Assembly: GCA_049969715.1 (NCBI GenBank)
Contig: JBMFOH010000035.1
Coordinates: forward strand, 1-14,489
Origin: JBMFOH01 sp049969715 [NCBI: bacterium]
GTDB taxonomy: Bacteria > DUMJ01
Length of the DNA: 14,489 nucleotides
Direction of reading: 5' to 3'
Positions 362 through 14,328 of this stretch are shown one piece after another. The position numbers were made by a program, and so were the translations under genes. Below the pieces are notes generated by a model. The model had not been told where the DNA came from. It saw only the letters and a list, made by a program, of their open reading frames with translations, and did not search any database. How positions within the stretch are numbered: the stretch's first letter is position 1; every line of letters begins with the position of its first letter.

Positions 362-362
362 T

Positions 363-812
363 TGGTATACCTACCTTTCTTAGCATCTCTATTGCTATCT
401 GTCTTGCCTGTTCTTCTGTAACATCTTGGTGTAATAAGATTGCCTCTACTATCTGGTTACCTATTGTATATACAGGGGCTAATGATGTCATTGGCTCTTG
501 GAATATCATTGTGATGTCTTTTCCTCTTATCTTTCTAATCTCTTCTCCTTGAGGATTAAGTTTGGTAAGGTCTATAGCCTTACCATCACTATAGAGTATG
601 ATCTCTCCCTCTACTATCTCTCCTCTTGGTCCAAGGATTCTTAAGATAGACTGGGCAGTTATACTCTTACCACAGCCTGATTCTCCAACTACACCAAGGG
701 TCTTACCCTTTACTATCTTAAAATCAATTCCATCTATAGCTTTAACTGTACCCTCATCATAGAAAAAGTAGGTCTTAAGATTCTTAACTTCTAATAGAAC
801 ATTATCTTCCAT
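363..812 (-). pseudogene. DppD/OppD-type ABC transporter ATPase, 3'-truncated
   Basis: This is the N-terminal 150 or so residues of a peptide/oligosaccharide ABC transporter ATPase, a family usually about 320-340 residues long. Visible are the beta-strand start LLEVKNLKTYF, Walker A GESGCGKS near residue 45, and the Q-loop region MIFQEPMTSL near residues 102-111. The frame ends in EMLRKVGIP, where homologues continue with 'NP..R...P..LSGGM.QR', and then crosses into IS110 sequence and a stop. The ABC signature, Walker B, H-loop and the C-terminal oligopeptide-transporter tail are all missing, so it cannot hydrolyse ATP as a normal subunit. The start at 812 has a strong GGGAGGG ribosome site. 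It would have supplied one of the two ATPases for the permeases at 6963-9086. The partner DppF-type gene, normally next downstream, is not in the window. Confidence 0.9.
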
Positions 813-827
813 AATATTTCCCTCCCT

Positions 828-900
828 ATCCTTAGGGATCTGTAGTGAAGCTACAATATGAAATTATTCGCAAATAGTCGCTATTGTGAAATTCATAACT
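828..900. repeat. Cluster of short inverted repeats in the gap before the dppD-like remnant
   Basis: The 89-bp gap between the UroD-like remnant and the dppD-like remnant is unusually long for this operon and contains three foldable elements. They are ATCC-TTAG-GGAT (828-839), a perfect 5-bp stem TGTAG/CTACA with a 5-nt loop (841-855), and an imperfect larger palindrome with ends ATGAAATT and AATTCAT and an inner AATAG/CTATT stem (about 859-896). No run of T follows any of them on the minus strand, so a classical terminator is not supported. They may be a scar of decayed sequence or a processing site. Function is unknown. Confidence 0.35.
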
Positions 901-901
901 C

Positions 902-1557
902 TCAATCAACGCCAATATCTTCTCCGAGAGAATAAAGCTTTCCATCATCTTTGTAAATATATCTCCAGACAGTCTCAAAAGACGCCATTATATTTTCAAA
1001 AGGCATACTATTATCCAATTGGCCTGAAGATGAAGCAGATATTAAACCTCCACCCTTACCAGCTATTTCAAGGAAGCGTTTTGTCTCAGAAATAACTACC
1101 TCAGGTGTTGCAAATGATAGAATCTCTACTGCATCTAAGCCACCTACTAAAACTATTTTATTTCCATATTCTTCCTTAAATGATTCATAATCCATTCCTG
1201 CTGATATCTCAAGAGGATTAAAACCATCTATACCACAACAGATAAGAGCATCCATAGCTTTGCTTACATTCCCATCAGAATGAAATATAACCTTTATCCC
1301 TTTTGAATGAAGTGAATGACAAAATTCATAGATAGAAGGGAATAAGAGTCTTTCTAATATCCCTTTATTATTGGATGGCATAAATCAAGACATTTTGAGC
1401 AAGCTCGTATCCAAGCCTCCTCATCACCTATAGGGATAGGTTTCCCTCCAAAATATTCGAGGATATCATCATTGATAAGATAATCAAATATTGGTACCCT
1501 ATCAGGTATCTCCCTATTTAATACTGCCATTATACGGTCTTTTTTAGTCCAACTCAT
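902..1557 (-). pseudogene. UroD-family (MtaA-like) methyltransferase domain protein, internally deleted and frameshifted
   Basis: Two pieces of one gene lie in different frames. The N-terminal piece starts with ATG at 1557 (MSWTKKDRIMAVLNR..DRVPI), with an AGGTAGG ribosome site that overlaps the stop of the preceding GH4 remnant. It runs about 60 residues to CLDLCHP near 1380. The C-terminal piece (about 1381-902) carries FPSIYEFCHSLHSKGIKVIFHSDGNV, then NPLEISAGMD, VLVGGLDAVEIL and a final YKDDGKLYS tail. These are typical of the uroporphyrinogen-decarboxylase fold as used in MtaA/MtbA and corrinoid methyltransferase relatives, not of haem-pathway HemE. Intact relatives have about 340-380 residues, so roughly 120-150 residues between the pieces are gone and the frame is shifted. 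Such UroD-like genes often sit in sugar operons with no proven role. It is read as non-functional, unless the deletion is an assembly error. Confidence 0.8.
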
Positions 1558-1564
1558 ATATAGC

Positions 1565-2733
1565 CTACCTATAATGTTCACGTAATTCCTTGTGATAAGG
1601 AAGAGCAAATATATCATCAATAAGTTTATTTGCCTGCTCTATAGATGTTACCCATTTGTCTATTAAGACCAATTGAACTAGTAACTCTCGGCTTCCTTTG
1701 TTATAGGCTTCTAGTTCGATCTCAACAGGAGCAACTCTATCCCTTAAAATATGGGCAATTATAGGCTTAGGCAATCCTTTAGTCCGGATCCCCTCGATAC
1801 CACGTTTACTTACGAGGGCAGGGATTTCAACCTCAAAGTCTCTTGGAATTCCAGGTGTATATTCGCCATCGTTCTGTATATTTACAATAATTATCCTAGG
1901 AATATCACAGGTAATAGATTCTATAATAGGTATCATTGGTTCACCAGTAGGCTGTTTTATATCTAACTGAAATGCTTTGGCAATCTTTACTGATTGGTCC
2001 TCCGCTACAACTCTCAGTCTATTAGGAGTATTAGAAATATAATCAACATATTTCCACCACCACTCCCTTGAATCAGTACCCCATCGTTCTTCAACACTCT
2101 TGTCAGAATGGTACCACCATGGCCATGAAGCACCAGTTATACTAGCGGTATCACCAATAGAAATAGCTCCCAACTTACGATATAAATCCATTTTCTTCTT
2201 GCCTAACGTGCCTTCTGGGTGGGTCTTCCAATATTCTTCTGCCTTGGTTTTGAGCCACTCATCTATCATAGGGAATATGTCCTGTCCTTTGTAATATGCG
2301 TGAGTAAGCCATATAAAGTGGTTCACACCTGCTATCTCAAAAGTCATATACTCCCTTTCAAGACCTAATACATCAGCAATTTCATAAACTCCAGCAAAGC
2401 CATAGCAAAGACCAACTAACTTTATATTAGGGTACTTTCGATAGAGATGGGTTGTGCCAGCTAATACAGGATTTGATACTAATAAGTGCCACGCATTAGG
2501 ACAAATTTCAAGCATATCTTCAGTGATACTTTCAAACAATTTCAACTGATAGTAATTTAGCCAGAATGGTTCGTCGTATAGAATATGTTATATGCTGAAT
2601 TTAATCGCTCTTCATTTATATCCATAAGGCTTATAGTAGACCCATATAGATTCGGTGTTAAGCATAAGTCATGTATCAATCCAACAGTAAAAGACCCTCC
2701 AGCTCCTATAATACTTATCTTAATATCACTCAC
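1565..2733 (-). pseudogene. Second GH4 family glycosidase, internally deleted and frameshifted
   Basis: This is a close paralogue of the intact GH4 gene at 4275-5621, broken in the middle. The likely start is GTG at 2733 (protein VSDIKISIIGAGG), because an AAGGAGG site lies 11 nt upstream and the product then begins like its paralogue. The N-terminal piece has the GxGxxxxxG nucleotide-binding loop and the acidic strand end LMDINEERL, then leaves frame after SAYNIF near 2580. The other frame resumes at YDEPFWLNYYQ and runs to 1565 with VSNPVLAG, LVGLCYGF, VNHFIWLTH, WPWWYH and LPYHKELREHYR. Against the paralogue about 60-65 codons are missing, including a large part of the NAD- and substrate-binding N-domain. 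The GH4 metal ligands Cys and His are kept. Its stop overlaps the AGGTAGG ribosome site of the UroD-like gene. It is read as inactive. Confidence 0.88.
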
Positions 2734-2774
2734 AGCAAAATGCGCCTCCTTTTTTATCACCTTAGCGATGAGGT

Positions 2775-4265
2775 CTATGTCCTACAGTAGTTGTACAGTT
2801 TCTTATATAGAGAAAGGTAGTCCTGATATACTTTTTCATAAGAAACAGAGACCTTGGGATCCGGTTTAAAGACTCTAATAATTTTTACTGCCCTCTCAAC
2901 TGCATCTTTGAAATTAGAGAAAATTCCACATCCAATACCTGCTAATATCCCCGCGCCTAAGACAGAAGCCTCACTATAAAGGGGAACTTCGACTGGTAGA
3001 TTTAATACATCTGATTTCATCTGAAGCCAAATATCGCTCTTAGAAGCTCCACCTAGAGCTCTCACCCTCTCTACAGGGATAGAGAGAGACCTTAATAGGT
3101 CTATATTCTCCCTTAGCATAAATGAAACCGCCTCGACTATGGCCCTTATAAAATGAGCTCGGCTATGATTCAAAGTTACACCAACAAATGCTCCTCTAGC
3201 ATTAGGGTTGAAGTTTGGGCAAAAACTTCCGTTAAAATATGGAATAACTATGAGTCCATCAGACCCAGGTGGTATTTGATTTGCAAGGGATAACATCCTA
3301 TCATAATCCTCTATTCCATTGATGGAGGGGAAATTGTCTCTAAACCATCTTAATAGAATTCCTGCTGTCTCTGTATATGGCATAAGAATATATTTGTTCG
3401 GTATACAATGAGGAGAGCATGGAACTCTTCTTTGAGGATCAAAGATAGGTTCATCGGTAGTAGCTATTATAGCTAAGGCAGTGCCAGTAGTCTCCGTTAT
3501 AATACCTGGTTTAATATTCCCTGCACCTAAGGCACCTACCATTTGATCCATACCCCCATTTATAACAGGAATACCTGAGGGTAAACCAAGTTCCTTACTA
3601 ACCTCTAAGTTAATCCTCCCTATCAGAGTATGAGATTCCATAATACTAGGCAGTTTTTCGTGTCCTATACCCAAGATATTTAGCGCATCATCCCACCAAT
3701 CCCTCTTTACAATACTAAGATAACCAGTAGAGGATGAAACTGAAGGATCAGTAACAAATTCACCTGTTAGCTTCCAGATGAGATAGTCTTTTAGCACAAG
3801 AAACTTCGAAGTCTTACCAAAGATATCTGGCTCATTTCTTTTGATCCATAAGATCTTACATATAGGCCACATTGGAGAAACTTCAGGTAATCCGGTAGTT
3901 CTATACCATAGTTCGATAGGAATTTCTCTACCAATAATCTCTGATTCTTCTACCGCCCTCGAGTCTAACCAAACTATCACATTTCTTAGTACTTTCCCTT
4001 CCTTATCCAAGCAGACTAAGGTCTCTCCCTGACTAGATAGACCAATTGCAACTATTGAGGCAGAAGAAACACTAGATTTTTCTAACACATCTCTTATCCC
4101 AGCTTTGCAGCTATTCCAGTATGTATCAGCATAAGATTCTACTCTGTTATTTGAGGAAGTCTTCAGTGAATACTCCTGGATAGATAAAGAAACAAGCCCC
4201 CCTTTTTCATTAATCAATCCAACCTTAATCGAAGTAGTACCTATATCTATCCCCAATAGATACAT
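2775..4265 (-). CDS. FGGY-family sugar kinase (xylulokinase-like)
   Basis: A full-length 496-residue FGGY carbohydrate kinase, the usual size. It phosphorylates a sugar, most often a ketose, with ATP in the cytoplasm. Both actin-like domains are recognisable. The first begins LGIDIGTTSIK (residues 4-14), holds WLDSR (99-103), and ends near the catalytic-base motif GGMDQMVGALG (237-247, Asp240). The second has TETTGTA (257-263), FNPNARGAFVGVTL (352-365), and the adenosine site LGGASKSDIW (404-413) followed by EASVLGAG (432-439). Its length and WLDSR resemble xylulokinases, but this family changes substrate easily and I would not assign xylulose. The ATG is 9 nt after the stop of the GH4 gene, whose AGG-TAG ending doubles as the ribosome site, so the two are probably translationally coupled. 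In the operon it would phosphorylate the ketose made by the isomerase at 11265-12608. Confidence 0.9.
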   Translation of the reverse strand: MYLLGIDIGTTSIKVGLINEKGGLVSLSIQEYSLKTSSNNRVESYADTYWNSCKAGIRDVLEKSSVSSASIVAIGLSSQGETLVCLDKEGKVLRNVIVWLDSRAVEESEIIGREIPIELWYRTTGLPEVSPMWPICKILWIKRNEPDIFGKTSKFLVLKDYLIWKLTGEFVTDPSVSSSTGYLSIVKRDWWDDALNILGIGHEKLPSIMESHTLIGRINLEVSKELGLPSGIPVINGGMDQMVGALGAGNIKPGIITETTGTALAIIATTDEPIFDPQRRVPCSPHCIPNKYILMPYTETAGILLRWFRDNFPSINGIEDYDRMLSLANQIPPGSDGLIVIPYFNGSFCPNFNPNARGAFVGVTLNHSRAHFIRAIVEAVSFMLRENIDLLRSLSIPVERVRALGGASKSDIWLQMKSDVLNLPVEVPLYSEASVLGAGILAGIGCGIFSNFKDAVERAVKIIRVFKPDPKVSVSYEKVYQDYLSLYKKLYNYCRT

Positions 4266-4274
4266 AGGGCTACT

Positions 4275-5621
4275 CTACCTGTAGTGTTCTCTCATCTCTT
4301 TATGATATGGTAGAGATAGTATTTCTTCTAGAAAAGCTCTTGCCTGTTTCTCACTCTTTGTCCAGGGGTCCATAAGGATAAGCTGAAGGAGTTTCTCTTT
4401 ACTACCCTCTATATAAGCGGATAGTTCCATTTCTACCGGCGCTACTCTTTCTCTCAGTATGAGACCAATAATTGACTTTGGTAAACCATTAATCTTTATC
4501 CCCTGAATCCCTTTCTTACTGACCAGCGCAGGTATCTCTACTTCAAAGTCCTGTGGAATCTCCTCTATGAACTTTCCAATGTTTGGTATATTTACTTGCA
4601 ATATTCTTGGTATATCAAGGGCTATAGATTCTACAAGAGGGATAATAACTTCTCCCGAGCTCTTTGGTGGATAGACTTCCGTTAACTTCACAGAACTATC
4701 TTTGGCTAACCTGTTCATTTCTTCTATACGTTGTTTCCCATCCACAAAATATCCTTCATACCAAGTCTTAGGGTCTTCCTTCCATCTCTTTTCTGTCTCG
4801 TCATCTATGTGATACCACCAAGGCCAAGTCCCTCCACCAGGTGTTGCGGTATCTCCAATTGGATATAATCCAAATCTCTTATACACATCTACTGGCTTAG
4901 GTCCCATATGATCGCTGAATCCACAAGTCTTCCAATAGTCTTGTGCCTTTTCTTCAATCCATTTATCTAGCAATGGATAAGCATTCTCCCCTTTATAAGT
5001 AAAATGAGTAAGAAAGACAAAATGGTTTACACCAGGAATCTGAAAGCTTATGTACTCTTTCTCTAGACCAAGGACACTTGCTATATGGTATATACCAGTA
5101 AAACCGTGACAGAGTCCTACAAGCTTTATATCTTTATACTTTCTAGATAAGTAAGTTATACCTGCTAGAACTGGATTTGCGACCTGAATATACCAAGCTG
5201 ACGGACATAATTCTTGCATATTATCTAATATAGATTCAAATAATCTAAACTGGTAAAAGTTTATCCAGAAAGCCTCATCATGGACTATATGAAAACTTCC
5301 GCCAAATCTATAACCGTACTTAAATGCTATAGACCAACCTTCTCTAAGTCTATCGTGACTAGCAGATAGAGCAGAGTTTATAATAAAGTCTGCACCTCTT
5401 AGAGACTCTCTTAGGTCTAGTGTTTTTTCTAAATTTAGTCTAACCCCAAGTTCTTCAGCATACCTCTTACATAGGGTATATACAGTATCTAGTCTCTTCT
5501 CATTTATATCCATAAAACTGATCGTACTTCCCTCAAGACTTGGTGTGAGGCATATATCTCTAACAAGTCCAAGAGAAAAGACTGCGCTTCCTGCACCTAT
5601 AATACTTATTTTTATACTCAT
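4275..5621 (-). CDS. GH4 family NAD-dependent glycosidase
   Basis: An intact 448-residue family GH4 enzyme. The family uses NAD+ and a divalent metal, usually Mn2+, to cleave glycosides by transient oxidation at C3 followed by elimination. Features are the Rossmann loop SIIGAGSAVFSLGLV (residues 6-20), DIN at 38-40, VHDEAFW (113-119), ANP (148-150), the metal-ligand motif CHGF with Cys171, His200 in PGVNHF (29 residues after the Cys, the family spacing), Asp257 in IGDTA, and a Trp-rich WPWWYH (266-271). In GH4 the four residues starting at the Cys track substrate class. From memory CHEV, CHSV and CHGx mark alpha-glucosidases, alpha-galactosidases and alpha-glucuronidases, so CHGF is nearest the glucuronidase type but not proof. 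It has no signal peptide and is cytoplasmic. The start has a GGAGGG site 6 nt upstream and lies 13 nt after the GH30-like stop. Confidence 0.92.
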   Translation of the reverse strand: MSIKISIIGAGSAVFSLGLVRDICLTPSLEGSTISFMDINEKRLDTVYTLCKRYAEELGVRLNLEKTLDLRESLRGADFIINSALSASHDRLREGWSIAFKYGYRFGGSFHIVHDEAFWINFYQFRLFESILDNMQELCPSAWYIQVANPVLAGITYLSRKYKDIKLVGLCHGFTGIYHIASVLGLEKEYISFQIPGVNHFVFLTHFTYKGENAYPLLDKWIEEKAQDYWKTCGFSDHMGPKPVDVYKRFGLYPIGDTATPGGGTWPWWYHIDDETEKRWKEDPKTWYEGYFVDGKQRIEEMNRLAKDSSVKLTEVYPPKSSGEVIIPLVESIALDIPRILQVNIPNIGKFIEEIPQDFEVEIPALVSKKGIQGIKINGLPKSIIGLILRERVAPVEMELSAYIEGSKEKLLQLILMDPWTKSEKQARAFLEEILSLPYHKEMREHYR

Positions 5622-5634
5622 ATCTTTCCCTCCA

Positions 5635-6945
5635 TCACTTTACTGTTGTAATGGTAAATATACTCTTAGGTGGAACAGCAAAAAATATGCCATTATACGG
5701 GTAATTCTGAGTTTTCATCCTAAGTTCCTCAACCTTCGCACAATTTTCCTCTTCGCTAGTTCTATAGTAGGATAAAACCTTATCCTCTATCTCCCCCTCT
5801 ATAGAACCGTTAAGATATAAACTCTCCGATGAAAGGTTCATACCAACTATTGTTAATTCTTTCTTGTCATCATCTGTAAATGCCAAGATTCTTATTTTAT
5901 CAGATCCCAAGATAGTTCTTACCTTTACAAAACTAGGTCTAACAAATCTATATACCTGCTTAGCGGAGTAGTATCTTTTCTTCGGGGTAAAGACCCTCTG
6001 CCCTCTCCTTATTAGACCATATATAGTCCAGGCTTTATCATGATCATGATAGTTGTCGTAGGCATCCCAGTATATTGCTCCGTTAAATCCTCCCTCTAAG
6101 ATATTAAAGAGTCTATAGGTAGTTATCCATGCTACATACCATTCCATCTCTCCAGATTGGTCTAGATCTCCATACTCACCCATCCAGATACTACATTTCT
6201 TACAGAGACTTTCCTTTACCGTATCAACGAACCCTTTAAGGGTCTCTACTGGTATATTAGAGTACATATGCATAGATATTACACCAATCTTTTGAGAGAT
6301 CTCTGGATCATTTATTAGGTGCTTTATATAGTCAGTATTGAAGAATGCCTGCTCAGTTAAAACAAGTTTTATATCTCCTAGCCCATCTTCAAATCTATTA
6401 ATTAGAGCCTTAATGATCTTAGCAAATTCTCCAGAGTCTACCTTCGGACCTTCTGGAGGTCCTATGTCTGTCTCATTTAGAGGACCAAAGAGAGTAAACT
6501 TTATACCTTCTCTATTCTTTACCCAATCTAAAAAAGAGTACATCATTTCTACAAAATAGTCATATCTAACTAAAGTCTTTCCATCACTAGTCATCCAAGA
6601 AGGGACTATTCCACTAGCGGTTATGTAAGGGCTTATCCCCCTTTCATTTAGGTATCTCATCATACCCCATCCATTCTCAAAGTCTTTACTCTTATAGACC
6701 TTTTCATAGTTCTTTTGGTTTAGAGAAGATGGTCCTAATGTATCATCAGGATCTATCCAGTTAGATTTGCCATATACATCAATTCTAAAGAGCCTAGCTC
6801 CAAGATCATCGATTAAAAGATCTAATACTGGTTTTAGAGATCCATTTTCCCAGTATTTAGAATTTATATTTACACCAAAACCATCTATCTTCTGATATTT
6901 CTCAGATAGATCTATTTTGAAAGGGATAACCTCTAAGGGTTTCAT
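5635..6945 (-). CDS. Clan GH-A glycoside hydrolase, GH30-like, cytoplasmic
   Basis: A 436-residue retaining glycoside hydrolase with a TIM barrel (about residues 15-330) and a short C-terminal beta-sandwich (about 335-436), the layout of GH30 and related families. The opening YQKIDGFGVNIN is typical of GH30-type barrels. The acid/base is Glu158 in FGPLNETD and the nucleophile is Glu257 in IWMGEYGD, 99 residues apart, as expected for clan GH-A. SMHMYSN (224-230) and AIYWDAYDNYH (290-300) fit barrel strands 6 and 8. There is no signal peptide or membrane segment, so it should act on imported oligosaccharides. It is downstream of the transporter genes and 13 bp before GH4, which suggests the two act in sequence on one substrate. 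The ATG has a GGGAGGT site. Exact family and linkage specificity are uncertain. GH30, GH39 or an unclassified clan A group are all possible. Confidence 0.78.
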   Translation of the reverse strand: MKPLEVIPFKIDLSEKYQKIDGFGVNINSKYWENGSLKPVLDLLIDDLGARLFRIDVYGKSNWIDPDDTLGPSSLNQKNYEKVYKSKDFENGWGMMRYLNERGISPYITASGIVPSWMTSDGKTLVRYDYFVEMMYSFLDWVKNREGIKFTLFGPLNETDIGPPEGPKVDSGEFAKIIKALINRFEDGLGDIKLVLTEQAFFNTDYIKHLINDPEISQKIGVISMHMYSNIPVETLKGFVDTVKESLCKKCSIWMGEYGDLDQSGEMEWYVAWITTYRLFNILEGGFNGAIYWDAYDNYHDHDKAWTIYGLIRRGQRVFTPKKRYYSAKQVYRFVRPSFVKVRTILGSDKIRILAFTDDDKKELTIVGMNLSSESLYLNGSIEGEIEDKVLSYYRTSEEENCAKVEELRMKTQNYPYNGIFFAVPPKSIFTITTVK

Positions 6946-6962
6946 AATAACCTCCCATTACT

Positions 6963-8078
6963 TTAATATTTGTAAGGGTCCATAGCATCTCTTAAACCAT
7001 CCCCCATAAAATTGAAGGCAACAACAGTAATTATCACAAAGAAGCTTGGAATGAGTAACCAAGGGTGCAATACTAGTGTTCTGAAATTTTGTGCTTGTTG
7101 TAGGAGAACCCCCCAGCTAACTACCGGAGGACGAAGTCCTAAGCCTAAAAAGCTTAGAGCAGTTTCTCCTAAAATCATACCTGGTATAGACATAGTAATA
7201 CTAACTATTAGTAAACTGGCTGTAGAGGGAAGGATATGCCTTAGTATTATTCTTGATTCACTAGCTCCAGCAAGTCTAGCAGCAGTAACAAAATCCTCTT
7301 CCCTTAACTCTAAAACTTTCCCTCTAACGGTTCTTGCAGTTCCACACCAACCAAAAAGTGAGAGTATTATAGTAATGCCAAAGTATACTTTAACTGCAGA
7401 CCAGTCTGGAGGCAGAGCAGCTGCTAAAGCCATCCAAAGAGGCAATGTAGGTAAAGAGATAAGAAAATCTATAATTCTTTGAATAGCCATATCTACTGTT
7501 CCACTATAATATCCGGATATTCCTCCTAGTATAATACCTAAAGTGAATGATAGAAAAACTCCAATAAGTCCTACAGATAAAGAGATTCTAGAGGCCATAA
7601 TGATTCTAGAGTAGAGATCTCTTCCAAGATTATCTGTTCCGAATAGAAAGAGAATATTAGGTTCGTCTATGCCAAATAGATGTATATCCGATCCAAATAT
7701 ACCCCAAAGCCTATACCTATTTCCTCGAATGAACAATCTTATAGAATATCTCTTTGTCTTATCCTCTGTATAGACCTTCTCCCAAGTAATCGGATCTCTC
7801 TCAAATTTTAAACCGTAGACAAATGGGACTAGATGAAATCTTCCATTTTCATCTACAAAGTGTATCTTAGTTGGAGGTAAGAATACTCGATCTTTATCCT
7901 CTTTGAACGGGTCTTGAGTACAGAAGAACTCTGCAAATATGGCTATTGTATATAAAATAAAGAGTATAATCATTCCTAAAACAGCCAATTTATGTTTTTT
8001 AAACCTCCACCATATAAGTTCCCACTGACTAGCGGTATATATATCTTCACCTGTTCTATTAACTCTTCTTTTCCACAT
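6963..8078 (-). CDS. DppC/OppC-type ABC transporter permease
   Basis: The second membrane subunit of a peptide/oligosaccharide-type ABC importer. The better start is ATG at 8078 (371 residues), because AGGTGA sits 5 nt before it. A GTG three codons upstream has no proper site. The order is a cytoplasmic N-terminus with WWRFKKHKLAVLG, TM1 (about residues 31-51), a long external segment of about 90 residues, FGTDNLGRDLYSR (about 146-158), then the five-TM permease core. The EAA loop EEDFVTAARLAGASESRIIL (about 260-279) contacts the ATPase. The C-terminus NFMGDGLRDAMDPYKY is diagnostic for the family. The long segment after TM1 exceeds that of classic DppC and resembles sugar-oligomer transporters annotated in thermophiles. 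It follows the DppB-type gene by 12 nt. No intact ATPase gene for it is present in the window. Confidence 0.93.
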   Translation of the reverse strand: MWKRRVNRTGEDIYTASQWELIWWRFKKHKLAVLGMIILFILYTIAIFAEFFCTQDPFKEDKDRVFLPPTKIHFVDENGRFHLVPFVYGLKFERDPITWEKVYTEDKTKRYSIRLFIRGNRYRLWGIFGSDIHLFGIDEPNILFLFGTDNLGRDLYSRIIMASRISLSVGLIGVFLSFTLGIILGGISGYYSGTVDMAIQRIIDFLISLPTLPLWMALAAALPPDWSAVKVYFGITIILSLFGWCGTARTVRGKVLELREEDFVTAARLAGASESRIILRHILPSTASLLIVSITMSIPGMILGETALSFLGLGLRPPVVSWGVLLQQAQNFRTLVLHPWLLIPSFFVIITVVAFNFMGDGLRDAMDPYKY

Positions 8079-8090
8079 AGATATCACCTA

Positions 8091-9086
8091 CTATCCATAC
8101 CTTATCCTTGGGTCTAATATAGCAAGGAGCATATCAGAGATGAATGTTCCAAATACTGTCATACCAGCAAGTAATAAAACGATGCTACCTCCTAGATACA
8201 TATCCTGAGTTATAAGACTCTGAAGTAAAAGGGGGCCTAGTGTAGGAAGATTGAGGACTATACCTACTATACTCTCCGAAGATATTACCCAAGGGATATC
8301 CCATCCTATTGTACTTACTACAGGATTTAGAGCTATCCTTACAGGATACTTCCAAAGTAGTTTCTTCTCTGGAACGCCCTTAGCCCTGGCGGTGATTACA
8401 TACTGTTTTCTTAACTCGTCCAATAGACAGCCTCTTAATACCCTTATCACTGAGGCAGTGCTAGATATAGCCACTATTACTATAGGTATCCAGAGGTGTT
8501 TAACCATATCTAAAAACTTGCCTATACTCCAAGGTGCAGTGGCATACTGAGGTGAGAAGATACTGCCGATATTCAGGTTAAAGTATCTATAAGCTAGAAA
8601 CATTAATATAAGAGCTAGAAGGAATTGCGGTATCGACATACCTAAAAAACTTATCCCAGAAAATACAAAATCTCCAATAGAGTACTGATGAGTTGCAGAG
8701 TATATCCCTACAGGTATAGATACTAGGTATATAAATATGACACTTAAAAGAGCAATACTAAGGGTAATTGGTAATCTCTCTAAAATGAGATCTTTTACAG
8801 GTTTTCTCCAGGCTAGAGATTGTCCAAGATCTCCATAAAAGACTATACGTTCCATCCATCTTAAATAACGTATATATTCAGGTTGGTCTAGTCCATATAG
8901 CCTTCTGAGTTGAGCCTCATAGGCTACCCTGTCTGCAGGACCCCTTCCGCTCTGCACCAACCTATTTACATATGTAGTTACAAAATCTCCCGGTGGTAGT
9001 TCAATAATGATAAATGTTAGAAGAGATATTATCCAGAGTGTAACAACCATATAAAAGAGTCTTCTTATAATATAACTTAGAAACAT
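8091..9086 (-). CDS. DppB/OppB-type ABC transporter permease
   Basis: A 331-residue inner-membrane permease of the binding-protein-dependent transport family, usual length about 310-340. It has an N-terminal TM helix after MFLSYIIRRLFYM, the typical PPGDF (residues 31-35) and YGLDQP (64-69) external motifs, YGDLGQSL (84-91), five further TM segments, and the EAA loop from YVITARAKGVPEKKLLWKYP (229-248). It ends in LAILDPRIRYG, the conserved family tail. The ATG at 9086 follows a GGAGGAGG site. It forms the translocation pore with the DppC-type protein next door. The gene begins 57 bp after the binding-protein gene, with a stem-loop between them that probably sets the ratio of binding protein to permease. 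Confidence 0.94.
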   Translation of the reverse strand: MFLSYIIRRLFYMVVTLWIISLLTFIIIELPPGDFVTTYVNRLVQSGRGPADRVAYEAQLRRLYGLDQPEYIRYLRWMERIVFYGDLGQSLAWRKPVKDLILERLPITLSIALLSVIFIYLVSIPVGIYSATHQYSIGDFVFSGISFLGMSIPQFLLALILMFLAYRYFNLNIGSIFSPQYATAPWSIGKFLDMVKHLWIPIVIVAISSTASVIRVLRGCLLDELRKQYVITARAKGVPEKKLLWKYPVRIALNPVVSTIGWDIPWVISSESIVGIVLNLPTLGPLLLQSLITQDMYLGGSIVLLLAGMTVFGTFISDMLLAILDPRIRYG

Positions 9087-9113
9087 AACGTTCCTCCTCC
9101 AGGATTGTAATAA

Positions 9114-9136
9114 GGGGGCTCCAATACAGAGCCCCC
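9114..9136 (-). terminator. Intercistronic stem-loop after the binding-protein gene (attenuating terminator or RNA stabiliser)
   Basis: A perfect 8-bp G+C-rich inverted repeat GGGGGCTC/GAGCCCCC surrounds a 7-nt loop and begins 7 nt after the binding-protein stop. On the transcribed strand it is followed by TTATTACAATCC, a weak rather than full U tract. The ribosome site of the permease comes just after. Stem-loops in this position are well known in binding-protein operons, where they protect the upstream message or end part of the transcription, giving more binding protein than permease. Complete termination is unlikely because the operon continues for about 8 kb with no other promoter seen. 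Confidence 0.75.
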
Positions 9137-9143
9137 AGAGAGA

Positions 9144-11234
9144 CTACTTCTGCCAATCAAAGAGTGGAGGTTCAAGATATATGGCTTCTGTATAATAGTA
9201 ATCGATCCAAGCGGTTCCCGCTATACCTCCTCCAAGTCCGGTTGGTGGAAAGTTTCTTATGTTCTTCCTTATAACGATAGGACCTGGAACCATACCCACA
9301 AGACCAATAGTTAATAGCTGTTCAGTGCTCCATCTAATTATCTCTTTACCTAGTCGAGCCATATCAGAGAATGACCTGGCGACTTCAAGTTGTTCCCACT
9401 TCTTAGTGACCTTTAGTATGTCCTCTGGTGGTTTCTCTCCAATCTTACCGTCAGTTAAATACCACTTTACCCACAGAGGACCCCAGGCACCATCGCTCCA
9501 GTCGTGATAGAGGACATAATGGTTAGGAGCCATAAAGAGATTATCATCTGTGCAAGCAGCTCCACCTCCTAGGGATAACTGATGAAGATTCCCTGTAACT
9601 CTCTGATCCCAGAGATCCCCACTAGAACTCTTTATAGTTACATCTAAGCCTATAGCCTTCCAATATTTGACTAAAAGCTCTGCTGTAGCAGAAACATCGT
9701 AACCTTCCGCAGTACCTGTAGCAGTATCAAATATTAAAGATAGTTTCTTACCGTCTGGCCTTAGTCTAAATCCATCTGGTCCCTTCTTTAGACCCATACT
9801 GTCTAAGAGTTTATTCGCCTTAGCAGGATCATACTGAGTATATGTCTTCTCTAACCCCTTAGTGTAGAACATAGAGATAGGTAAGACGGTACTTGCAGTT
9901 GGAGTTCCTTTGCCGAAGAAGAGTATATCATTCATCTCATCCCTATTAATAGCAAGAGATAAAGCGATCCTGAATCTCTTATCCTGGAATATCTTTCTTA
10001 GGGTCAGGTCATCCTTGTATGTCTGATTTACAGATACACATAATCCCCCAGCCCTATTTGCATATGGATAAATAAGAACTTTGTACTGACCCTTTTCTGC
10101 ATTTTTGGCTAGGGCAGGATAGTTTGCAGTAGCTATTCCAGGGGCAAAATCAAGTTCCCCTGCTATTGCCATACTCTCGTAGACTTCATCACTAGAGACC
10201 ATCTTTATAATGATTCTATCTAGATATGGTAACTGCTTTCCCTCAGTGTCTACCTTCCAATAGTAGGGATTCCTCTCTAAGACTATCTGAGTCTGTGATC
10301 TCTCCTTAAGTATATAAGGAGAGAGCGTCGGCATCTCGCATACACCACCCCACCCATGCCTAGCCTTTTCTCCAAAGAGTTCGTACCAGAATTTAAATCC
10401 TGCTTTTTTTGCCATTTCATCTAGTTTCTTGGGATCTGTATACTTGGGATGGAATTGCCTTAGATAATGCTTAGGATATTGACACATCTCTTCAGGACCC
10501 CAAGTAGCGAGTTTATAAAGTATAGCTGGATTTGGCGCAGCAAACTCTATTCGAACAGTATAGTCATCAACCTTCTTAAACTTCCACACCTGTCCCCCTA
10601 ATATCCATCTCCTATCTATCGTCGGTGTGAGATCTTTGTTTAGAAGTATATCTTCATACCAGAACATTATGTCATCTGCAGTGAATGGTTCTCCATCTGA
10701 CCATTTTAGACCTTTTCTTAGATATAGCGTTATAGACTTTAGGTCCCTAGATATATCCCAATTCTTTATTACATTTGGAACATTTGGTCTAGGACGTGCC
10801 TCTTCTAGAGTTAGTCCCACATTTGGTCTTAAAGGTGCCTCCATGTTGTTTATATGTAAGGCATAACCCTGCGAATCTGAAGCAGAAGAAGCGGTAGTTA
10901 CAGCTCCTCCGTAGACACCAGATTTTTCAAAGGGGTTTACAACCAAGGGCTCTTCGGGTAATCTATCCTCTACTGGAGGAAGTTTTCCCTGTTTTACAAG
11001 TTCTGCTAACATAGGAGATTCTTGATACTTACTTATCTTCTTTCCTGTAAGTTCTGTGTACTCTTGGGGTGTACTATAGATCCATCTATGGGTCTTGGCC
11101 TTTGCATACTCTTCATCACTGGCAGGAACCCAGGTATAGGGATAACTCTTTTTAGCCTGGGCAAAGGCACTAACCTGCCATAAACTAGTTAACAAGATAC
11201 TCAATACCACTAATAATGATGCTAACTTCCTCAT
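9144..11234 (-). CDS. Family 5 extracellular solute-binding protein (DppA/OppA type), probably oligosaccharide-binding
   Basis: A 696-residue periplasmic binding protein for the adjacent permeases. It begins with a standard signal peptide, basic MRK then a hydrophobic core and a likely cleavage site SAFA-QA near residue 25. There is no lipobox Cys, so it should be soluble in a periplasm rather than a lipoprotein. The mature protein has SBP_bac_5 marks: LYLRKGLKWSDGEPFTADDI, a central PYLDRIIIKMV, and KRFRIALSLAINRDEMNDILF, with a Pro-rich end. At about 700 residues it is longer than classic peptide-binding proteins (about 530) and similar to the long members that bind oligosaccharides in thermophiles. 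Here it stands next to glycosidases, a sugar isomerase and a sugar kinase, so a carbohydrate ligand is favoured. The start at 11234 has a GAAGGAGGG site. Confidence 0.92.
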   Translation of the reverse strand: MRKLASLLVVLSILLTSLWQVSAFAQAKKSYPYTWVPASDEEYAKAKTHRWIYSTPQEYTELTGKKISKYQESPMLAELVKQGKLPPVEDRLPEEPLVVNPFEKSGVYGGAVTTASSASDSQGYALHINNMEAPLRPNVGLTLEEARPRPNVPNVIKNWDISRDLKSITLYLRKGLKWSDGEPFTADDIMFWYEDILLNKDLTPTIDRRWILGGQVWKFKKVDDYTVRIEFAAPNPAILYKLATWGPEEMCQYPKHYLRQFHPKYTDPKKLDEMAKKAGFKFWYELFGEKARHGWGGVCEMPTLSPYILKERSQTQIVLERNPYYWKVDTEGKQLPYLDRIIIKMVSSDEVYESMAIAGELDFAPGIATANYPALAKNAEKGQYKVLIYPYANRAGGLCVSVNQTYKDDLTLRKIFQDKRFRIALSLAINRDEMNDILFFGKGTPTASTVLPISMFYTKGLEKTYTQYDPAKANKLLDSMGLKKGPDGFRLRPDGKKLSLIFDTATGTAEGYDVSATAELLVKYWKAIGLDVTIKSSSGDLWDQRVTGNLHQLSLGGGAACTDDNLFMAPNHYVLYHDWSDGAWGPLWVKWYLTDGKIGEKPPEDILKVTKKWEQLEVARSFSDMARLGKEIIRWSTEQLLTIGLVGMVPGPIVIRKNIRNFPPTGLGGGIAGTAWIDYYYTEAIYLEPPLFDWQK

Positions 11235-11264
11235 AATAATTCCCTCCTTCTATAAAAATTTTAA

Positions 11265-12608
11265 TTAAACTAATTCAATATTAAGGACCTTACAGAGATC
11301 ACGGATCTCTTCTTTATGGTCCCCGTAAATTACAAGGTAATGCTGAGAGACAATCTTCTGGGCAAACTCTTCTACTGGAACATCTAGTTTGATTTCAAGG
11401 CTTGGGAAGAATGGAGCAGGGGCTTCCCAGCCGAGCTCTTCCCATCTTCTTGGGGGCAGTCCCTCGCCGGTTACCATATGGAGTTTGTAGCTATCTCCTT
11501 TTGAGAATAGCCTAACTAAAGTTAAAGGACCCGTCTTCATCCTTGAGACATTCATAGCACCTTCTGATAACCCTCCCCATCCGGCATACCTAGTGACACA
11601 AACCTTACCCTCTGTAGCCCCAGGCGGAACAAAACCGCAGATACCTACTAAGATCCTATCTTTCATAAACTCATACATCTCTACATAAGGAGCAGGTTGA
11701 CCAGTGAGATAATTTATTATAAGCTGGGTAACTGCACCCAAGGTGTCATCCTCACATATAACAGGTAGTTCTTCTGATAACATTGTAAGTATCATACAGG
11801 GTGGAAAGTTCATATATTTTTTCATACCTTCGACGCATTTTATAGAGATAGCGTTATAAGATCCTTCTTTTATCCTTTCTTTGATTGCTAAATATATACG
11901 GATAGCATTTACAAGAGCTTCTTCTCGAACATCTGGATTGATATTCCAAGACTTTTTCTTCTCTTCAAGAAGATCTTGAACATCCCTATGAGAGACCTTC
12001 TCCATCTTTTGGACTATCTCAAGCATATCGAATACCTCTACTTCAGGTCCTATCTTTGCCCTTAGAGACATACCATCAAACATACAGACATAGAGACCCA
12101 TATCTGCATATCCCATCATACCAACCTTAGAATGTCTCAACTTTTTAATCGTCTTAGCAACCTTAGAAAAGGTAAGGACCTTGTCTATAGACATTGGCGA
12201 ATCAGGAAAATCATATATGTACTTAAACTTATAACCCATAGCCTCTAATGTCCATCTTAATCCACTAGTTCCAGCCTGGGAGGCTGGCGAAACTAGAGAG
12301 CCATTTTGGGTATATCCACCTAATCCCCAAAGAAGTATCGGTTTATCTCTGAACTCATCAGTAACTCTTATAACTATAGGGGATTCGATCCAGCTAGCTA
12401 TACAGAGGATTAAGAAATCGAAGTCTTCTTTCTTTAAATCTCCTATAGCCCTATCCGCTTCTTCGAACGTTCCTACAGGAGGAGTATAGACTAACTCTAA
12501 TCCAGCCTTCTCTAATTCTTCTCTAGCTTTTTCCGATCTTCTTTCTATAACTTCCCTAGGATATGACACACAACCAAAACCTACAAAACCCGCCTTTACC
12601 CTATCCAT
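11265..12608 (-). CDS. FucI/AraA-family sugar ketol isomerase
   Basis: A 447-residue protein of the L-fucose/L-arabinose isomerase superfamily. These metal-dependent enzymes interconvert aldose and ketose through an enediol. The N-terminal half (residues about 1-160) has alternating strands with DFDFLILCIASWIESP and LLWGLGGYTQNG. The middle holds KVGMMGYADMGLY. The C-terminal half has the probable metal-site residues Glu260 (IKCVEGM), the CEDD group at 285-288 and His423 (SQHYLVIYGDH), followed by the family C-terminal helix. It is shorter than FucI (about 590) and AraA (about 500) and fits the diverged 'L-fucose isomerase-like' group, so its sugar is unknown. The aldolase stop TAG overlaps the AGGAGGT site of this gene, spaced 5 nt from ATG, which implies coupled translation. 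In context it turns the aldose released by the glycosidases into the ketose for the FGGY kinase. I assign the family confidently and the substrate not at all. Confidence 0.82.
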   Translation of the reverse strand: MDRVKAGFVGFGCVSYPREVIERRSEKAREELEKAGLELVYTPPVGTFEEADRAIGDLKKEDFDFLILCIASWIESPIVIRVTDEFRDKPILLWGLGGYTQNGSLVSPASQAGTSGLRWTLEAMGYKFKYIYDFPDSPMSIDKVLTFSKVAKTIKKLRHSKVGMMGYADMGLYVCMFDGMSLRAKIGPEVEVFDMLEIVQKMEKVSHRDVQDLLEEKKKSWNINPDVREEALVNAIRIYLAIKERIKEGSYNAISIKCVEGMKKYMNFPPCMILTMLSEELPVICEDDTLGAVTQLIINYLTGQPAPYVEMYEFMKDRILVGICGFVPPGATEGKVCVTRYAGWGGLSEGAMNVSRMKTGPLTLVRLFSKGDSYKLHMVTGEGLPPRRWEELGWEAPAPFFPSLEIKLDVPVEEFAQKIVSQHYLVIYGDHKEEIRDLCKVLNIELV

Positions 12609-12617
12609 AGAGACCTC

Positions 12618-13439
12618 CTATTTTAGTTCCTTCATCGCGGACTCTACTGAGGCATCATCATGGACTATCTTACATATAGCTCTAAGGATAGGTACGGGGT
12701 CTTTCGCCTCCCATATATTACGTCCCATAGAGACTCCACCTGCTCCACAATCCATAGCCTCCCTGATGAATTTTAAAAGTACTTCTGGATCATCTGAGGC
12801 TGGACCACTAAGGACTAAGTATGGAACAGGACAATATTTCACTACTTCTTTGAATGATTCAGGATCACCAGTATAGTATCCCTTTACGATATCTGCCCCT
12901 ACTTCAGCTGCTACCCTGGCAGAAAATTTTATAACTTCAGGATCCTTTGGCCATTCCCTCTCTGCTTTTGTCTCAAACTGATGGATTAATATGTCTGGAG
13001 GTATCATTTCTATCATAAGAGGCATTCCCCACAGGTCGCATAATTCACTCACTTTTCCGTTCTTTTCTATGAGATCTGCCTCTCTAGGCACACCTATAAC
13101 CCCAAAGGTGGCTACAGCATCGGCACCAAACCTAAGAGCTTGCTCTACTGAGGAGATTAAATGATCATTAGTTAGATCTGGCCCTATAGATGTCGCTGTT
13201 CCATCTATCCTTAGCATAAATGAAATATTTCCTGCGACCTCTTTGTATACCTGCTTAGCTATCCCAGGGGTAACTAGAACAGCATCTGCGCCTCCATCTG
13301 TTGCCATCTTTACTATCCTCTTTGGATCTTCTAGACCCTTCATAGGCTTGATACATATGCCATGATCAAGTGTAACAAGGACAAATCGCTTAGATCTAGA
13401 CTTAAACAATCTTGCCAATCTAATCTCTTTTCCTATCAT
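12618..13439 (-). CDS. Class I (Schiff-base) aldolase, DeoC/FbaB/LacD superfamily
   Basis: A TIM-barrel aldolase, 273 residues from the ATG at 13439. I prefer this start because it gives MIGKEIRLARLF, how these proteins usually begin, and has GGATGG upstream. The ATG four codons earlier is almost on top of its AAAGG. VTLDHG has the conserved Asp25, and DIVKGYYTGD has the Schiff-base Lys186. Later come a phosphate-site-like VSMGRNIWEA and a preceding SGPASDD. The position where archaeal-type fructose-bisphosphate aldolases have a catalytic Tyr (as in SYPRG) reads EMIPPD here. Glu144 just before it recalls the catalytic Glu of LacD/YihT-type aldolases. It most likely cleaves the ketose phosphate made by the kinase into dihydroxyacetone phosphate and an aldehyde. 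Transaldol or LsrF-like thiolase activities are alternatives. It is the first enzyme gene after the regulator. Confidence 0.85.
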   Translation of the reverse strand: MIGKEIRLARLFKSRSKRFVLVTLDHGICIKPMKGLEDPKRIVKMATDGGADAVLVTPGIAKQVYKEVAGNISFMLRIDGTATSIGPDLTNDHLISSVEQALRFGADAVATFGVIGVPREADLIEKNGKVSELCDLWGMPLMIEMIPPDILIHQFETKAEREWPKDPEVIKFSARVAAEVGADIVKGYYTGDPESFKEVVKYCPVPYLVLSGPASDDPEVLLKFIREAMDCGAGGVSMGRNIWEAKDPVPILRAICKIVHDDASVESAMKELK

Positions 13440-13461
13440 TTGATACACCATCCTTTCTTTT

Positions 13462-14256
13462 TTATGATAAGATCACCTTAATACCTTTAGATTCTAGTGC
13501 TTTAACCTCTTCAGGATTAGCCTCTCGGTTAGTAACAAGGATATCTATATACTCTGGAGAAGTAATAGGCACTACCCCCCTTTTCCCCACTTTCGTATAG
13601 TCTGCTACAATAATCACCTCCTCTGAATGTTCTGCCATTATCCTTGTAACCCCAGCATTCTCTGGATCATGAGAAGTAACACCTTTCTCAGCAGTAATGC
13701 CATCTGCTCCAATAATAGCTATTGAAGCCTTATAAAGCTGTACCTCTTCTTCAGCTATTGAACCAACAAAACATTCTTCATGGAACTGATAGAGACCTCC
13801 AATCCCTACTATCCGAAGATATGGACATGTCCCTAGCTCTCTAATAACTGGTAAAGAATTAGTAATAACCATTATCCTTTCTCCATTTATTGGCTCATAT
13901 CGTCTTGCTAGTTCTCTTGCTATGTATAAAGCAGTAGAACCTGTATCAAAGAAAATAACTTTCTCTTCCTTCTTACTTTTGATCAATTCTACTGTGGCTT
14001 TAGCGATTCTCTTTTTCTCCTCTTGACGAACCCCTAACTTCATCTCTAGAGTAGAGATATAAGATGATCTTGTAGATAGCTTTATACTTCCATAACCCCT
14101 TGATATAATCCCCTTGGATTCTAAAATACGTAGGTCTCTTGTTATTGAAGCATAGGGAATATCTTTGAGATGAGACAAAAGTTCCTTGATAGATAACTCT
14201 TGTTTCTCTCTAATTATCTCTAATATTCTAATCCTTCTCTCTTCTGTTTTTAACAT
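13462..14256 (-). CDS. DeoR-family transcriptional regulator
   Basis: A DeoR/GlpR-type repressor, the first gene of the operon. I prefer the ATG at 14256 (264 residues), because GGAG lies 6 nt before it and the product starts MLKTEERRIRILEII, standard for the family. The upstream in-frame ATG at 14268 has no ribosome site. The N-terminal winged helix (about residues 17-58) reads LSIKELLSHL, then ASITRDLRILESKGIISRGYGSIKL. The C-terminal sugar-phosphate sensor domain shows FFDTGSTAL (about 102-110), ITNSLPVIREL, GIGGLY, ECFVGSIAEE, IIGADGITAEKGVTSHDPE and VADYTKVGKRGVV, all typical. Members bind phosphorylated sugars and release DNA. Placed directly behind the operon promoter it probably represses its own operon, and the kinase product or an aldolase product is a likely inducer. 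A 22-bp gap separates it from the aldolase start chosen here. Confidence 0.93.
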   Translation of the reverse strand: MLKTEERRIRILEIIREKQELSIKELLSHLKDIPYASITRDLRILESKGIISRGYGSIKLSTRSSYISTLEMKLGVRQEEKKRIAKATVELIKSKKEEKVIFFDTGSTALYIARELARRYEPINGERIMVITNSLPVIRELGTCPYLRIVGIGGLYQFHEECFVGSIAEEEVQLYKASIAIIGADGITAEKGVTSHDPENAGVTRIMAEHSEEVIIVADYTKVGKRGVVPITSPEYIDILVTNREANPEEVKALESKGIKVILS

Positions 14257-14281
14257 TTGTTGCTCCATAACAATAAAATTT

Positions 14282-14328
14282 TGTTTATATTTTACACTAT
14301 ATAGTCAAGAGTTGTCAATATATAAACA
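14282..14328 (-). promoter_or_regulatory. Operon promoter inside a 9-bp inverted repeat (candidate DeoR operator)
   Basis: On the minus strand TTGACA (14318-14313) and TAAAAT (14294-14289) are separated by 18 bp, a near-consensus sigma-70 promoter that would start transcription near 14282, about 26 nt before the regulator ATG. It is framed by a perfect inverted repeat, TGTTTATAT at 14282-14290 and ATATAAACA at 14320-14328, 29 bp apart. The spacer also contains a perfect 10-bp palindrome ACTATATAGT (14296-14305) and a second TTGAC copy. Binding to these elements would occlude RNA polymerase, so they are the best operator candidates. The promoter is well supported; the operator role is inferred. 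Confidence 0.7.

What the first reader, a model, noticed from the sequence alone, without database searches (positions are those of the whole stretch)
2775..13439. Unassigned isomerase-kinase-aldolase sugar pathway with its own importer and glycosidases
The sequence shows a FucI/AraA-type isomerase, an FGGY kinase and a Schiff-base aldolase in one operon with a family 5 ABC importer, a GH30-like enzyme, a GH4 enzyme and a DeoR regulator. Known isomerase-FGGY kinase-aldolase routes (fucose, rhamnose) use class II aldolases. FucI-like isomerase with a LacD-like aldolase is known from sulfoglycolysis variants, but no sulfo-specific reductase, dehydrogenase or exporter is visible here. The combination with GH4 fits no pathway I can name, so the released sugar may be an uncommon aldose (deoxy, uronic, methylated or sulfo-sugar).
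Basis: partly seen in the sequence, partly recalled or inferred. Interest (0 to 1): 0.65.

Follow-up and report, generated by a model that had tools for sequence, protein, structure and literature searches.

The report
Unnamed isomerase-kinase-aldolase sugar operon
A bacterial operon that seems to import some sugar compound, cut it, and split the freed sugar with an unusual mix of enzymes; similar gene sets recur in other bacteria, but which sugar they serve is not known.

Summary
Nine genes on the minus strand (14268 to 2775, gaps 3-57 bp) encode a DeoR regulator, a Schiff-base aldolase, an AraA/FucI-fold isomerase, a family-5 binding protein, two permeases, a GH30-like hydrolase, a GH4 enzyme and an FGGY kinase. 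Residues checked in isomerase, aldolase, GH30-like and GH4 enzymes are kept, except AglA Arg263 in GH4.

Similar sets recur. In the class of one Chloroflexi MAG, 20 aldolase loci had an isomerase nearby in 12 and an FGGY kinase in 15, against 0 and 6 of 20 control loci. The GH4 subfamily occurs in 7 of 298 genomes; in 3 it sits with aldolase and isomerase, between MTTB-type methyltransferase genes. But the window's aldolase is on another branch, with one close relative (67%), also beside an isomerase and part of a kinase.

Best reading: aldose to ketose to ketose-1-phosphate to DHAP plus an aldehyde, from an unidentified, possibly methylated sugar. Sulfoglycolysis is not supported. New variant of a known kind; substrate unproven.

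The parts
14289..14318 (-). promoter-like site TTGACA-18-TAAAAT before the operon
   Evidence: best-scoring site of the window, 11 of 12 positions; 45 sites found against a mean of 45.4 in shuffles, so weak
13462..14268 (-). DeoR-family regulator
   Evidence: DeoRC 135.8 bits, HTH_DeoR 29.9 bits
12618..13451 (-). class I (Schiff-base) aldolase of the DhnA/ADHS/archaeal FBA group; Lys190, Asp29, Arg244 conserved
   Evidence: DeoC 143.4 bits; PRK07226 over cut-off; best PDB MJ0400, 212.9 bits; residues
11265..12608 (-). AraA/FucI-fold sugar isomerase; putative Mn ligands E286, E310, H423
   Evidence: AF2 pLDDT 84.3; AraA Z 33.5, FucI Z 30.2; ligand alignment
9144..11234 (-). family-5 substrate-binding protein of an ABC importer
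   Evidence: SBP_bac_5 243.8 bits
8091..9086 (-). OppB-type permease
   Evidence: BPD_transp_1 96.2 bits
6963..8087 (-). OppC-type permease
   Evidence: BPD_transp_1 104.3 bits, OppC_N 56.7 bits
5635..6945 (-). GH30-like glycoside hydrolase, E158 and E257 as putative acid/base and nucleophile
   Evidence: PDB AcXbh30A 7n6h 5e-12, and 2.8e-16 with a two-row profile; 50% identical relative in L161
4275..5621 (-). GH4 NAD/Mn-dependent glycosidase, AglA-like; C171, H200, D257 kept, AglA R263 position is T
   Evidence: Pfam GH4 131.3 and 120 bits; 1obb 4.9e-102; alignment A4
2775..4265 (-). FGGY sugar kinase with motif SSQGET
   Evidence: FGGY_N 229.7 bits; TIGR01312 387.3 vs 380.25; motif
1565..2733 (-). 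second GH4, broken: about 60 codons missing and frame changed
   Evidence: residues 4-50 in frame -2, 111-447 in frame -1 against L107 GH4
902..1557 (-). URO-D family (MtaA/MtbA-like) methyltransferase, broken: middle of about 200 residues missing
   Evidence: URO-D 41.4 bits; MtaA/MtbA-type models at E 7.5e-9 to 6e-6, far under cut-offs
336..812 (-). N-terminal part of an ABC ATPase (OppD-like by eye), cut
   Evidence: ABC_tran 44 bits over 124 residues
2..421 (+). IS110-family transposase piece at the edge of the window
   Evidence: Transposase_20 46.4 bits

Best explanation
A catabolic operon for an unidentified glycoside, presumably induced by it through the DeoR regulator. The family-5 ABC system brings in a small glycoside or oligosaccharide; the GH30-like hydrolase and the GH4 enzyme cut it inside the cell; the AraA/FucI-fold isomerase turns the freed aldose into a ketose; the FGGY kinase phosphorylates the ketose, most likely at C1; the Schiff-base aldolase splits the ketose-1-phosphate into DHAP and an aldehyde. 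This is the logic of the fucose and rhamnose pathways with a class I aldolase of the DhnA group in place of the class II enzyme. Shown: genes, order, families, fold and metal site of the isomerase (by model and alignment), active-site residues, recurrence of like gene sets. Inferred: order of the steps, C1 phosphorylation, the products. Unknown: the sugar.
For: Nine genes with gaps of 3-57 bp behind one regulator gene. Isomerase fold and metal ligands. Aldolase keeps the Schiff-base Lys190 and the GRN arginine R244 (shared by all 23 census and 21 control aldolases, so they support aldolase chemistry only). Recurrence: in 20 aldolase loci (three seed loci left out) an AraA/FucI-fold isomerase lies nearby in 12 and an FGGY kinase in 15, against 0 and 6 of 20 control DhnA-type aldolase loci (Fisher p 5e-5 and 0.01, loci not independent). 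The window's own closest aldolase (67% identical, L098, one of the 20) stands next to a FucI-fold isomerase and an FGGY C-terminal half. GH4 + isomerase + aldolase together in G798, G825 and G849. GH30-like + GH4 + OppBC + SBP_bac_5 together in G975.
Against: The window's aldolase is on another branch of the tree than the 23 aldolases of the recurring sets, so the parallel is of pathway layout, not of orthologues; for its own branch n is 2. Most isomerases of those sets are of the Arabinose_Iso_C type, not the window's type. Four of the seven GH4-subfamily loci have no isomerase, kinase or aldolase hit in the stretches fetched (three are cut by contig ends), so GH4 is not tied to this route. 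The kinase passes the XylB cut-off, and XylB makes a 5-phosphate that needs no aldolase. The downstream end of the operon is decayed and no ATPase is intact, so the operon may be on its way out in this strain.
Confidence: 0.6

Rival explanations
1. Ordinary pentose or deoxyhexose use (for example xylan or arabinan oligosaccharides): the isomerase and kinase handle D-xylose, L-arabinose, D-arabinose or a 6-deoxyhexose, and the aldolase is a spare fructose-bisphosphate aldolase.
For: Kinase over the XylB equivalog cut-off; nearest solved relative of the GH30-like enzyme is AcXbh30A and most other matches are GH30 xylanases; nearest fold of the isomerase is L-arabinose isomerase.
Against: Isomerase far under every equivalog cut-off (AraA model 35.3 of 622, FucI model 19.4 of 850). 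Kinase has Q-G-E where XylB has Q-M-H in the printed alignment. Aldolase and isomerase are neighbours in 12 of 20 loci, which fits one pathway better than a spare enzyme.
Confidence: 0.22
2. A sulfoglycolysis variant: the sugar is sulfoquinovose or another sulfosugar and the aldehyde is sulfolactaldehyde.
For: The best NCBIfam model for the isomerase is the sulfoquinovose isomerase SftI; sulfo-EMP has the same isomerase-kinase-aldolase logic.
Against: SftI score 91.7 against a cut-off of 700. No sulfolactaldehyde reductase or dehydrogenase, no sulfoquinovosidase, no DUF4867 and no exporter among the 13 window proteins scanned. The kinase is FGGY, not PfkB/PfkA. An isomerase relative beside sulfite reductase genes (L031) is only 22.6% identical. 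The rest of the genome could not be searched.
Confidence: 0.06
3. A decaying, no longer working operon, so that no function needs explaining in this strain.
For: Three downstream genes broken next to an IS110 piece.
Against: The nine upstream genes are all open, and the residues checked in four of their enzymes are in place except AglA R263 in GH4. ATPases can be supplied by another Opp system. The breaks could also be assembly errors.
Confidence: 0.1

Closest known systems
L-fucose (FucI-FucK-FucA) and L-rhamnose (RhaA-RhaB-RhaD) pathways
   Same: isomerase, FGGY kinase, aldolase to DHAP plus an aldehyde; the isomerase has the FucI/AraA fold and metal site
   Different: class I Schiff-base aldolase instead of the class II metal aldolase (class of FucA and RhaD recalled); isomerase 12-19% identical to the solved AraA and FucI chains; family-5 importer, GH4 and GH30-like hydrolases
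Sulfo-EMP / sulfo-EMP2 / sulfo-TAL sulfoglycolysis
   Same: ketose-1-phosphate logic in sulfo-EMP and EMP2; YihT is a class I aldolase of the same Pfam family (PF01791), SqvD a FucI homologue
   Different: kinase family (PfkB or PfkA there, FGGY here), no sulfo-specific partners in the window, isomerase not over the SftI equivalog cut-off
Recurring aldolase + FGGY + AraA-like isomerase + class III aminotransferase + DeoR loci in the class of G001, a Chloroflexi MAG (found here; no published name found)
   Same: three core enzyme families, often DeoR and an ABC importer; in G798 and G825 also the GH4 subfamily
   Different: aldolase on another branch; isomerase mostly of the Arabinose_Iso_C type; importers of other families; MTTB-type rather than URO-D-type methyltransferase genes beside GH4; no aminotransferase in the window
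Thermotoga GH4 enzymes AglA (1obb) and TM0752-type (1vjt)
   Same: GH4 family, Cys and His metal ligands, Asp260 equivalent
   Different: the window GH4 forms a subfamily with relatives of 52-59% identity over full length; it lacks the AglA Arg263 equivalent and has the motif GDTxxxxGxxWxxWYH

Membership tests
Fucose/rhamnose-type kinase-aldolase pathway | aldose isomerase of the AraA/FucI fold with its Mn ligands | tested here: met
   Z 33.5 to AraA, 30.2 to FucI; ligands E286, E310, H423 by alignment
Fucose/rhamnose-type kinase-aldolase pathway | FGGY kinase | tested here: met
   PF00370 and PF02782
Fucose/rhamnose-type kinase-aldolase pathway | class II (metal) aldolase | tested here: not met
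   aldolase is PF01791 with the Schiff-base lysine K190; no class II aldolase among the window proteins scanned
Fucose/rhamnose-type kinase-aldolase pathway | ketose phosphorylated at C1 and split to DHAP plus aldehyde | not testable with these tools
   needs enzymes in hand
Sulfoglycolysis (sulfo-EMP, EMP2, TAL) | sulfoquinovose isomerase SftI/SqvD or YihS | tested here: not met
   SftI 91.7 bits, cut-off 700; no YihS-type gene among the proteins scanned
Sulfoglycolysis (sulfo-EMP, EMP2, TAL) | sulfolactaldehyde reductase or dehydrogenase, sulfoquinovosidase, exporter | tested here: inconclusive
   none in the window, but the genome is not held
Xylulokinase (XylB) | NCBIfam TIGR01312 cut-off | tested here: met
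   387.3 vs 380.25 bits
Xylulokinase (XylB) | Gln-Met-His at the sugar site | tested here: not met
   window Q-G-E vs XylB Q-M-H in the alignment to 2itm; that these are sugar contacts is taken from PMC3245297 (passages) and recall
GH4 | Pfam GH4 domains with Cys/His metal ligands and Asp | tested here: met
   residue roles recalled
GH4 alpha-glucosidase AglA | NF041089 cut-off and Arg263 | tested here: not met
   362.8 vs 650 bits; T at the R263 position
GH30 | two catalytic Glu in a GH30 sequence context | tested here: met
   E158 and E257 align with Glu of 7n6h; that these are its catalytic pair is recalled
GH30 | curated family model over cut-off | tested here: not met
   only GH59 at 23.4 vs 27 bits; AF2 of the single sequence failed
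AI-2 degradation (LsrK/LsrF) | LsrK and LsrF equivalog cut-offs | tested here: not met
   AI-2 kinase model 251 vs 528, LsrF-type thiolase model 149.3 vs 297 bits
Archaeal ADH synthase (TIGR01949) | equivalog cut-off | tested here: not met
   233.6 vs 299.45 bits; only the broader PRK07226 is passed

The most novel reading that the evidence does not exclude
The operon belongs to a corrinoid-linked route for methylated sugars in anaerobes: a MTTB- or URO-D-type methyltransferase takes a methyl group off an O- or N-methylated glycoside or sugar, GH4 (and the GH30-like enzyme) frees it, and isomerase, FGGY kinase and class I aldolase split it. In this window the methyltransferase (902-1557) is broken; in G798, G825 and G849 MTTB genes stand on both sides of the GH4 gene.
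Probability: 0.12. Interest if true: 0.75.

Novelty: new variant of a known kind. Interest (0 to 1): 0.45.

Why it matters
If the reading is right, there is an unrecorded sugar route whose layout recurs in one class of Chloroflexi (25 aldolase genes in 21 of 298 genomes fall above a clear score gap), and a GH4 subfamily whose specificity cannot be read from known members. It gives a small, testable enzyme set for finding the sugar, and a possible link between glycan use and corrinoid methyltransferases.

Tried and rejected
Rejected or without result: (1) A special acid/base signature of the aldolase (Glu in place of TtFBA Trp144, loss of Tyr146): the Glu is present in all 24 aldolases of window and census loci, but also in 18 of 21 control aldolases, so it marks nothing. 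(2) My first mapping of the FucI ligands by eye was wrong; the alignment with E. coli AraA and FucI put it right. (4) Methyltransferase link: in the census URO-D 4 of 20 vs 1 of 20 and MTTB 3 of 20 vs 0 of 20 are not significant, the MTTB queries came from L107 and L052, and MTTB genes are common in these genomes (0 to 17 per genome, 16 of 20 genomes positive); what remains is that 3 of 9 (G798), 3 of 10 (G825) and 2 of 8 (G849) such genes lie by GH4, and G798 and G825 are near-identical there. (5) Taxonomic place of the window: not settled; no genome held, GC 36-42%. (6) GH30-like structure: AF2 on one sequence gave pLDDT 41.6 and was not used. (7) Viral contigs with the GH30-like protein and the aldolase: no relative. 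Plasmids: GH30-like none, isomerase 15 records, best 22.6% identity, aldolase 295 records, all under 60%. (8) Isomerase in 350 genomes of the phylum of G001 (E <= 1e-60: G001 only) and 398 of the phylum of G004 (E <= 1e-35: three, of which only G004 under 1e-60). (9) GH4 in 279 genomes of the phylum of G004: one match at E <= 1e-100, 39% identity. (10) Papers: nine searches; none of the titles and abstract starts listed showed this gene set; I read passages of PMC12890257, PMC9594981 (also its section 9) and PMC3245297, and only listings of the rest. Absence from this open-access library is weak evidence.

'Class of G001' is not named by the tools.


Full report
What is there. The window holds nine open genes on the minus strand, from DeoR (14268) to an FGGY kinase (2775), with gaps of 10, 9, 30, 57, 3, 17, 13 and 9 bp, preceded by the best promoter-like site of the window, 11 of 12 positions (45 such sites against 45.4 in shuffles). 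Families: DeoR; DeoC/LacD-type aldolase; isomerase; SBP_bac_5; OppB; OppC; a GH30-like enzyme; GH4; FGGY. The importer therefore has no intact ATPase in this window.

Isomerase. By sequence it is weak: Fucose_iso_C 28.0 bits (cut-off 29.3), AraA_central 27.8 bits (cut-off 24), SftI 91.7 bits (cut-off 700). An AF2 model from eight related sequences has mean pLDDT 84.3. It matches L-arabinose isomerases over 434 of 447 residues (Z 33.5, rmsd 3.4) and FucI (Z 30.2, rmsd 3.4, 434 aligned); the first unrelated rows are at Z 10.8. Aligned with E. coli AraA and FucI, window E286, E310 and H423 fall on FucI E337, D361 and H528; that these three are FucI's Mn ligands I recall. The enzyme is thus well supported as a metal-dependent aldose-ketose isomerase of unknown specificity.

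Kinase. It passes the xylulokinase model (387.3 vs 380.25 bits). But in the printed alignments XylB (2itm) and gluconate kinase (3gbt) have Gln-Met-His where the window has Gln-Gly-Glu, and LsrK (5ya0) has Met-Arg-Glu. Two signature residues of glycerol kinase, Arg83 and Glu84, are given in PMC3245297 (passages); that they fall on this pair I take from recall of the GlpK sequence. The motif SSQGET or SSHGET occurs in the window kinase and in 7 of 19 kinases of the census loci (L042, L049, L090, L091, L093, L107, L108); 10 have other motifs, mostly SSQGGT, 2 are not covered there, and the 6 control kinases lack it.

Aldolase. Schiff-base Lys190, Asp29 and Arg244 are kept, as in all 23 census and 21 control aldolases. 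The closest solved relative is MJ0400 (212.9 bits). The closest relative found is in G996 (67% identity; locus L098), where it lies next to a FucI-fold isomerase (34% to the window's), a zinc dehydrogenase and the C-terminal half of an FGGY kinase that ends at a run of N.

Recurrence. A profile of four aldolases (window, L042, L049, L054) found 25 genes over 246 bits in 21 of 298 genomes of the class of G001 (a MAG titled Chloroflexi bacterium; G001 is itself a seed), then a gap to 204 bits. I examined 23 loci (three of them the seeds, chosen because of their neighbours) and 20 control loci round lower-scoring aldolases, of similar mean length (13.4 and 14.8 kb). Without the seeds: isomerase 12 of 20 vs 0 of 20 (p 5e-5), FGGY 15 vs 6 (p 0.01), class III aminotransferase 10 vs 1 (p 0.003), DeoR 11 vs 1 (p 0.001), URO-D 4 vs 1, MTTB 3 vs 0, GH4 2 vs 0 (last three not significant). 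Four of the 25 hits (G1036, G786:C35, G1025, G849:C45) were not in the census; several loci are close kin, and some queries came from test loci (L097, L098, L100, L107), so the p values are too small; the isomerase and kinase loci were the same with outside queries. A tree puts 23 recurring-set aldolases (22 of the 23 census loci plus L158; L098 falls outside) in one clade (100/100) and the window with L098 elsewhere (100/99). So the layout recurs with two different aldolase lineages.

GH4 and GH30-like. The window GH4 has seven relatives of 52% identity or more in 298 genomes (one a partial gene of 67%); the next are at 46% or less (at most five candidates a genome were scored). In G798 and G825 (near-identical loci) the order of transcription is binding protein (by eye) - two permeases - MTTB - MTTB - GH4 - MTTB - aldolase - isomerase - FGGY - aminotransferase - Gfo/Idh; in G849 it is DeoR - MTTB - GH4 - MTTB - binding protein - permeases (by eye) - aldolase - isomerase, with no FGGY hit in the 20 kb stretch. 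In G957, G1002 and G975 the GH4 stands by a LacI-like gene (by eye) and a long gene which in G975, the one scanned, is a methylmalonyl-CoA mutase; a class III aminotransferase is seen in G957 and G975. There is no isomerase, FGGY or aldolase hit in the stretches fetched for these three; G869 is cut short and shows none either. The GH30-like protein is rare: 2 of 298 genomes, G957 and G975, both GH4-positive (chance 5e-4 if genomes were independent, which these two are not: their GH4 are 89% identical). In G975 GH30-like, an SDR, an S15-type hydrolase, OppB, OppC, SBP_bac_5, aminotransferase and GH4 lie together. Thus the harvest part of the window (importer, GH30-like, GH4) recurs as a unit at least once, apart from the isomerase-kinase-aldolase part.

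Residues. GH4: Cys171, His200 and Asp257 (AglA C174, H203, D260) are invariant in six members, while AglA Arg263 is absent in all six (the roles of these AglA residues are recalled). GH30-like: E158 and E257 align with Glu of 7n6h.

Mechanism and substrate. The simplest reading is uptake, hydrolysis, isomerisation, phosphorylation at C1, aldol cleavage to DHAP and an aldehyde. The C1 step is inferred from the aldolase type and from the retained arginine of the GRN motif. The sugar cannot be named. Sulfosugars are unlikely: no partner genes in the window, a different kinase family and a low SftI score; and sulfo-EMP2 pairs the FucI-like isomerase with a class II aldolase (PMC9594981 section 9; PMC12890257 passages), though hybrid clusters are reported there. 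Methyltransferase genes of two kinds keep company with this GH4 (MTTB in three genomes, a broken URO-D-type gene in the window), which makes a methylated sugar worth testing, but the statistics do not carry it.

Verdict. It is a new variant of the isomerase-kinase-aldolase kind rather than a new kind.

Noticed in passing
L107/L111 6996-12945, L108/L112, L158 11596-16050: GH4 genes flanked on both sides by MTTB-superfamily (trimethylamine methyltransferase-like) genes inside a sugar operon.
   Followed up: partly
window 336-2733: Run of three broken genes (GH4, URO-D-type, ABC ATPase) ending at an IS110 transposase piece: local decay or assembly breaks.
   Followed up: partly
L161 (G975) 399-13911: GH30-like, SDR, S15-type hydrolase, Opp importer, aminotransferase, GH4, LacI-like gene and a methylmalonyl-CoA mutase in one stretch; a LacI-like gene and a similar long gene also stand by GH4 in L159 and L160.
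   Followed up: partly
L048 (G370) 6218-19001: Another layout: class II FBA, FGGY, FucI-fold isomerase, DUF4432, ABC importer genes (by eye) and GH4 within 13 kb.
   Followed up: partly
L031 3113-12486 (Chlorohelix plasmid): L-fucose/L-arabinose isomerase family gene next to PPi-type phosphofructokinase, Gfo/Idh oxidoreductase, nitrite/sulfite reductase and siroheme genes; could be a sulfosugar cluster with its own sulfur assimilation.
   Followed up: no
L042 1-18412 (Chloroflexi RBG_19FT_COMBO_62_14): Three isomerase genes (one cut), two FGGY kinases, two URO-D genes, an aldolase and a class III aminotransferase on one 18 kb contig.
   Followed up: partly
L049 9795-11279, L090 10163-11629: A protein of about 490 aa between or beside kinase and isomerase in five loci (L049, L089, L090, L091, L093), with no Pfam or NCBIfam match in the one copy scanned (L049).
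   Followed up: no
L029 3866-11408 (Rhizobium sp. X9 plasmid): TRAP transporter, 2-hydroxyacid dehydrogenase, DhnA-type aldolase, zinc dehydrogenase and FGGY kinase in a row between IS elements.
   Followed up: no
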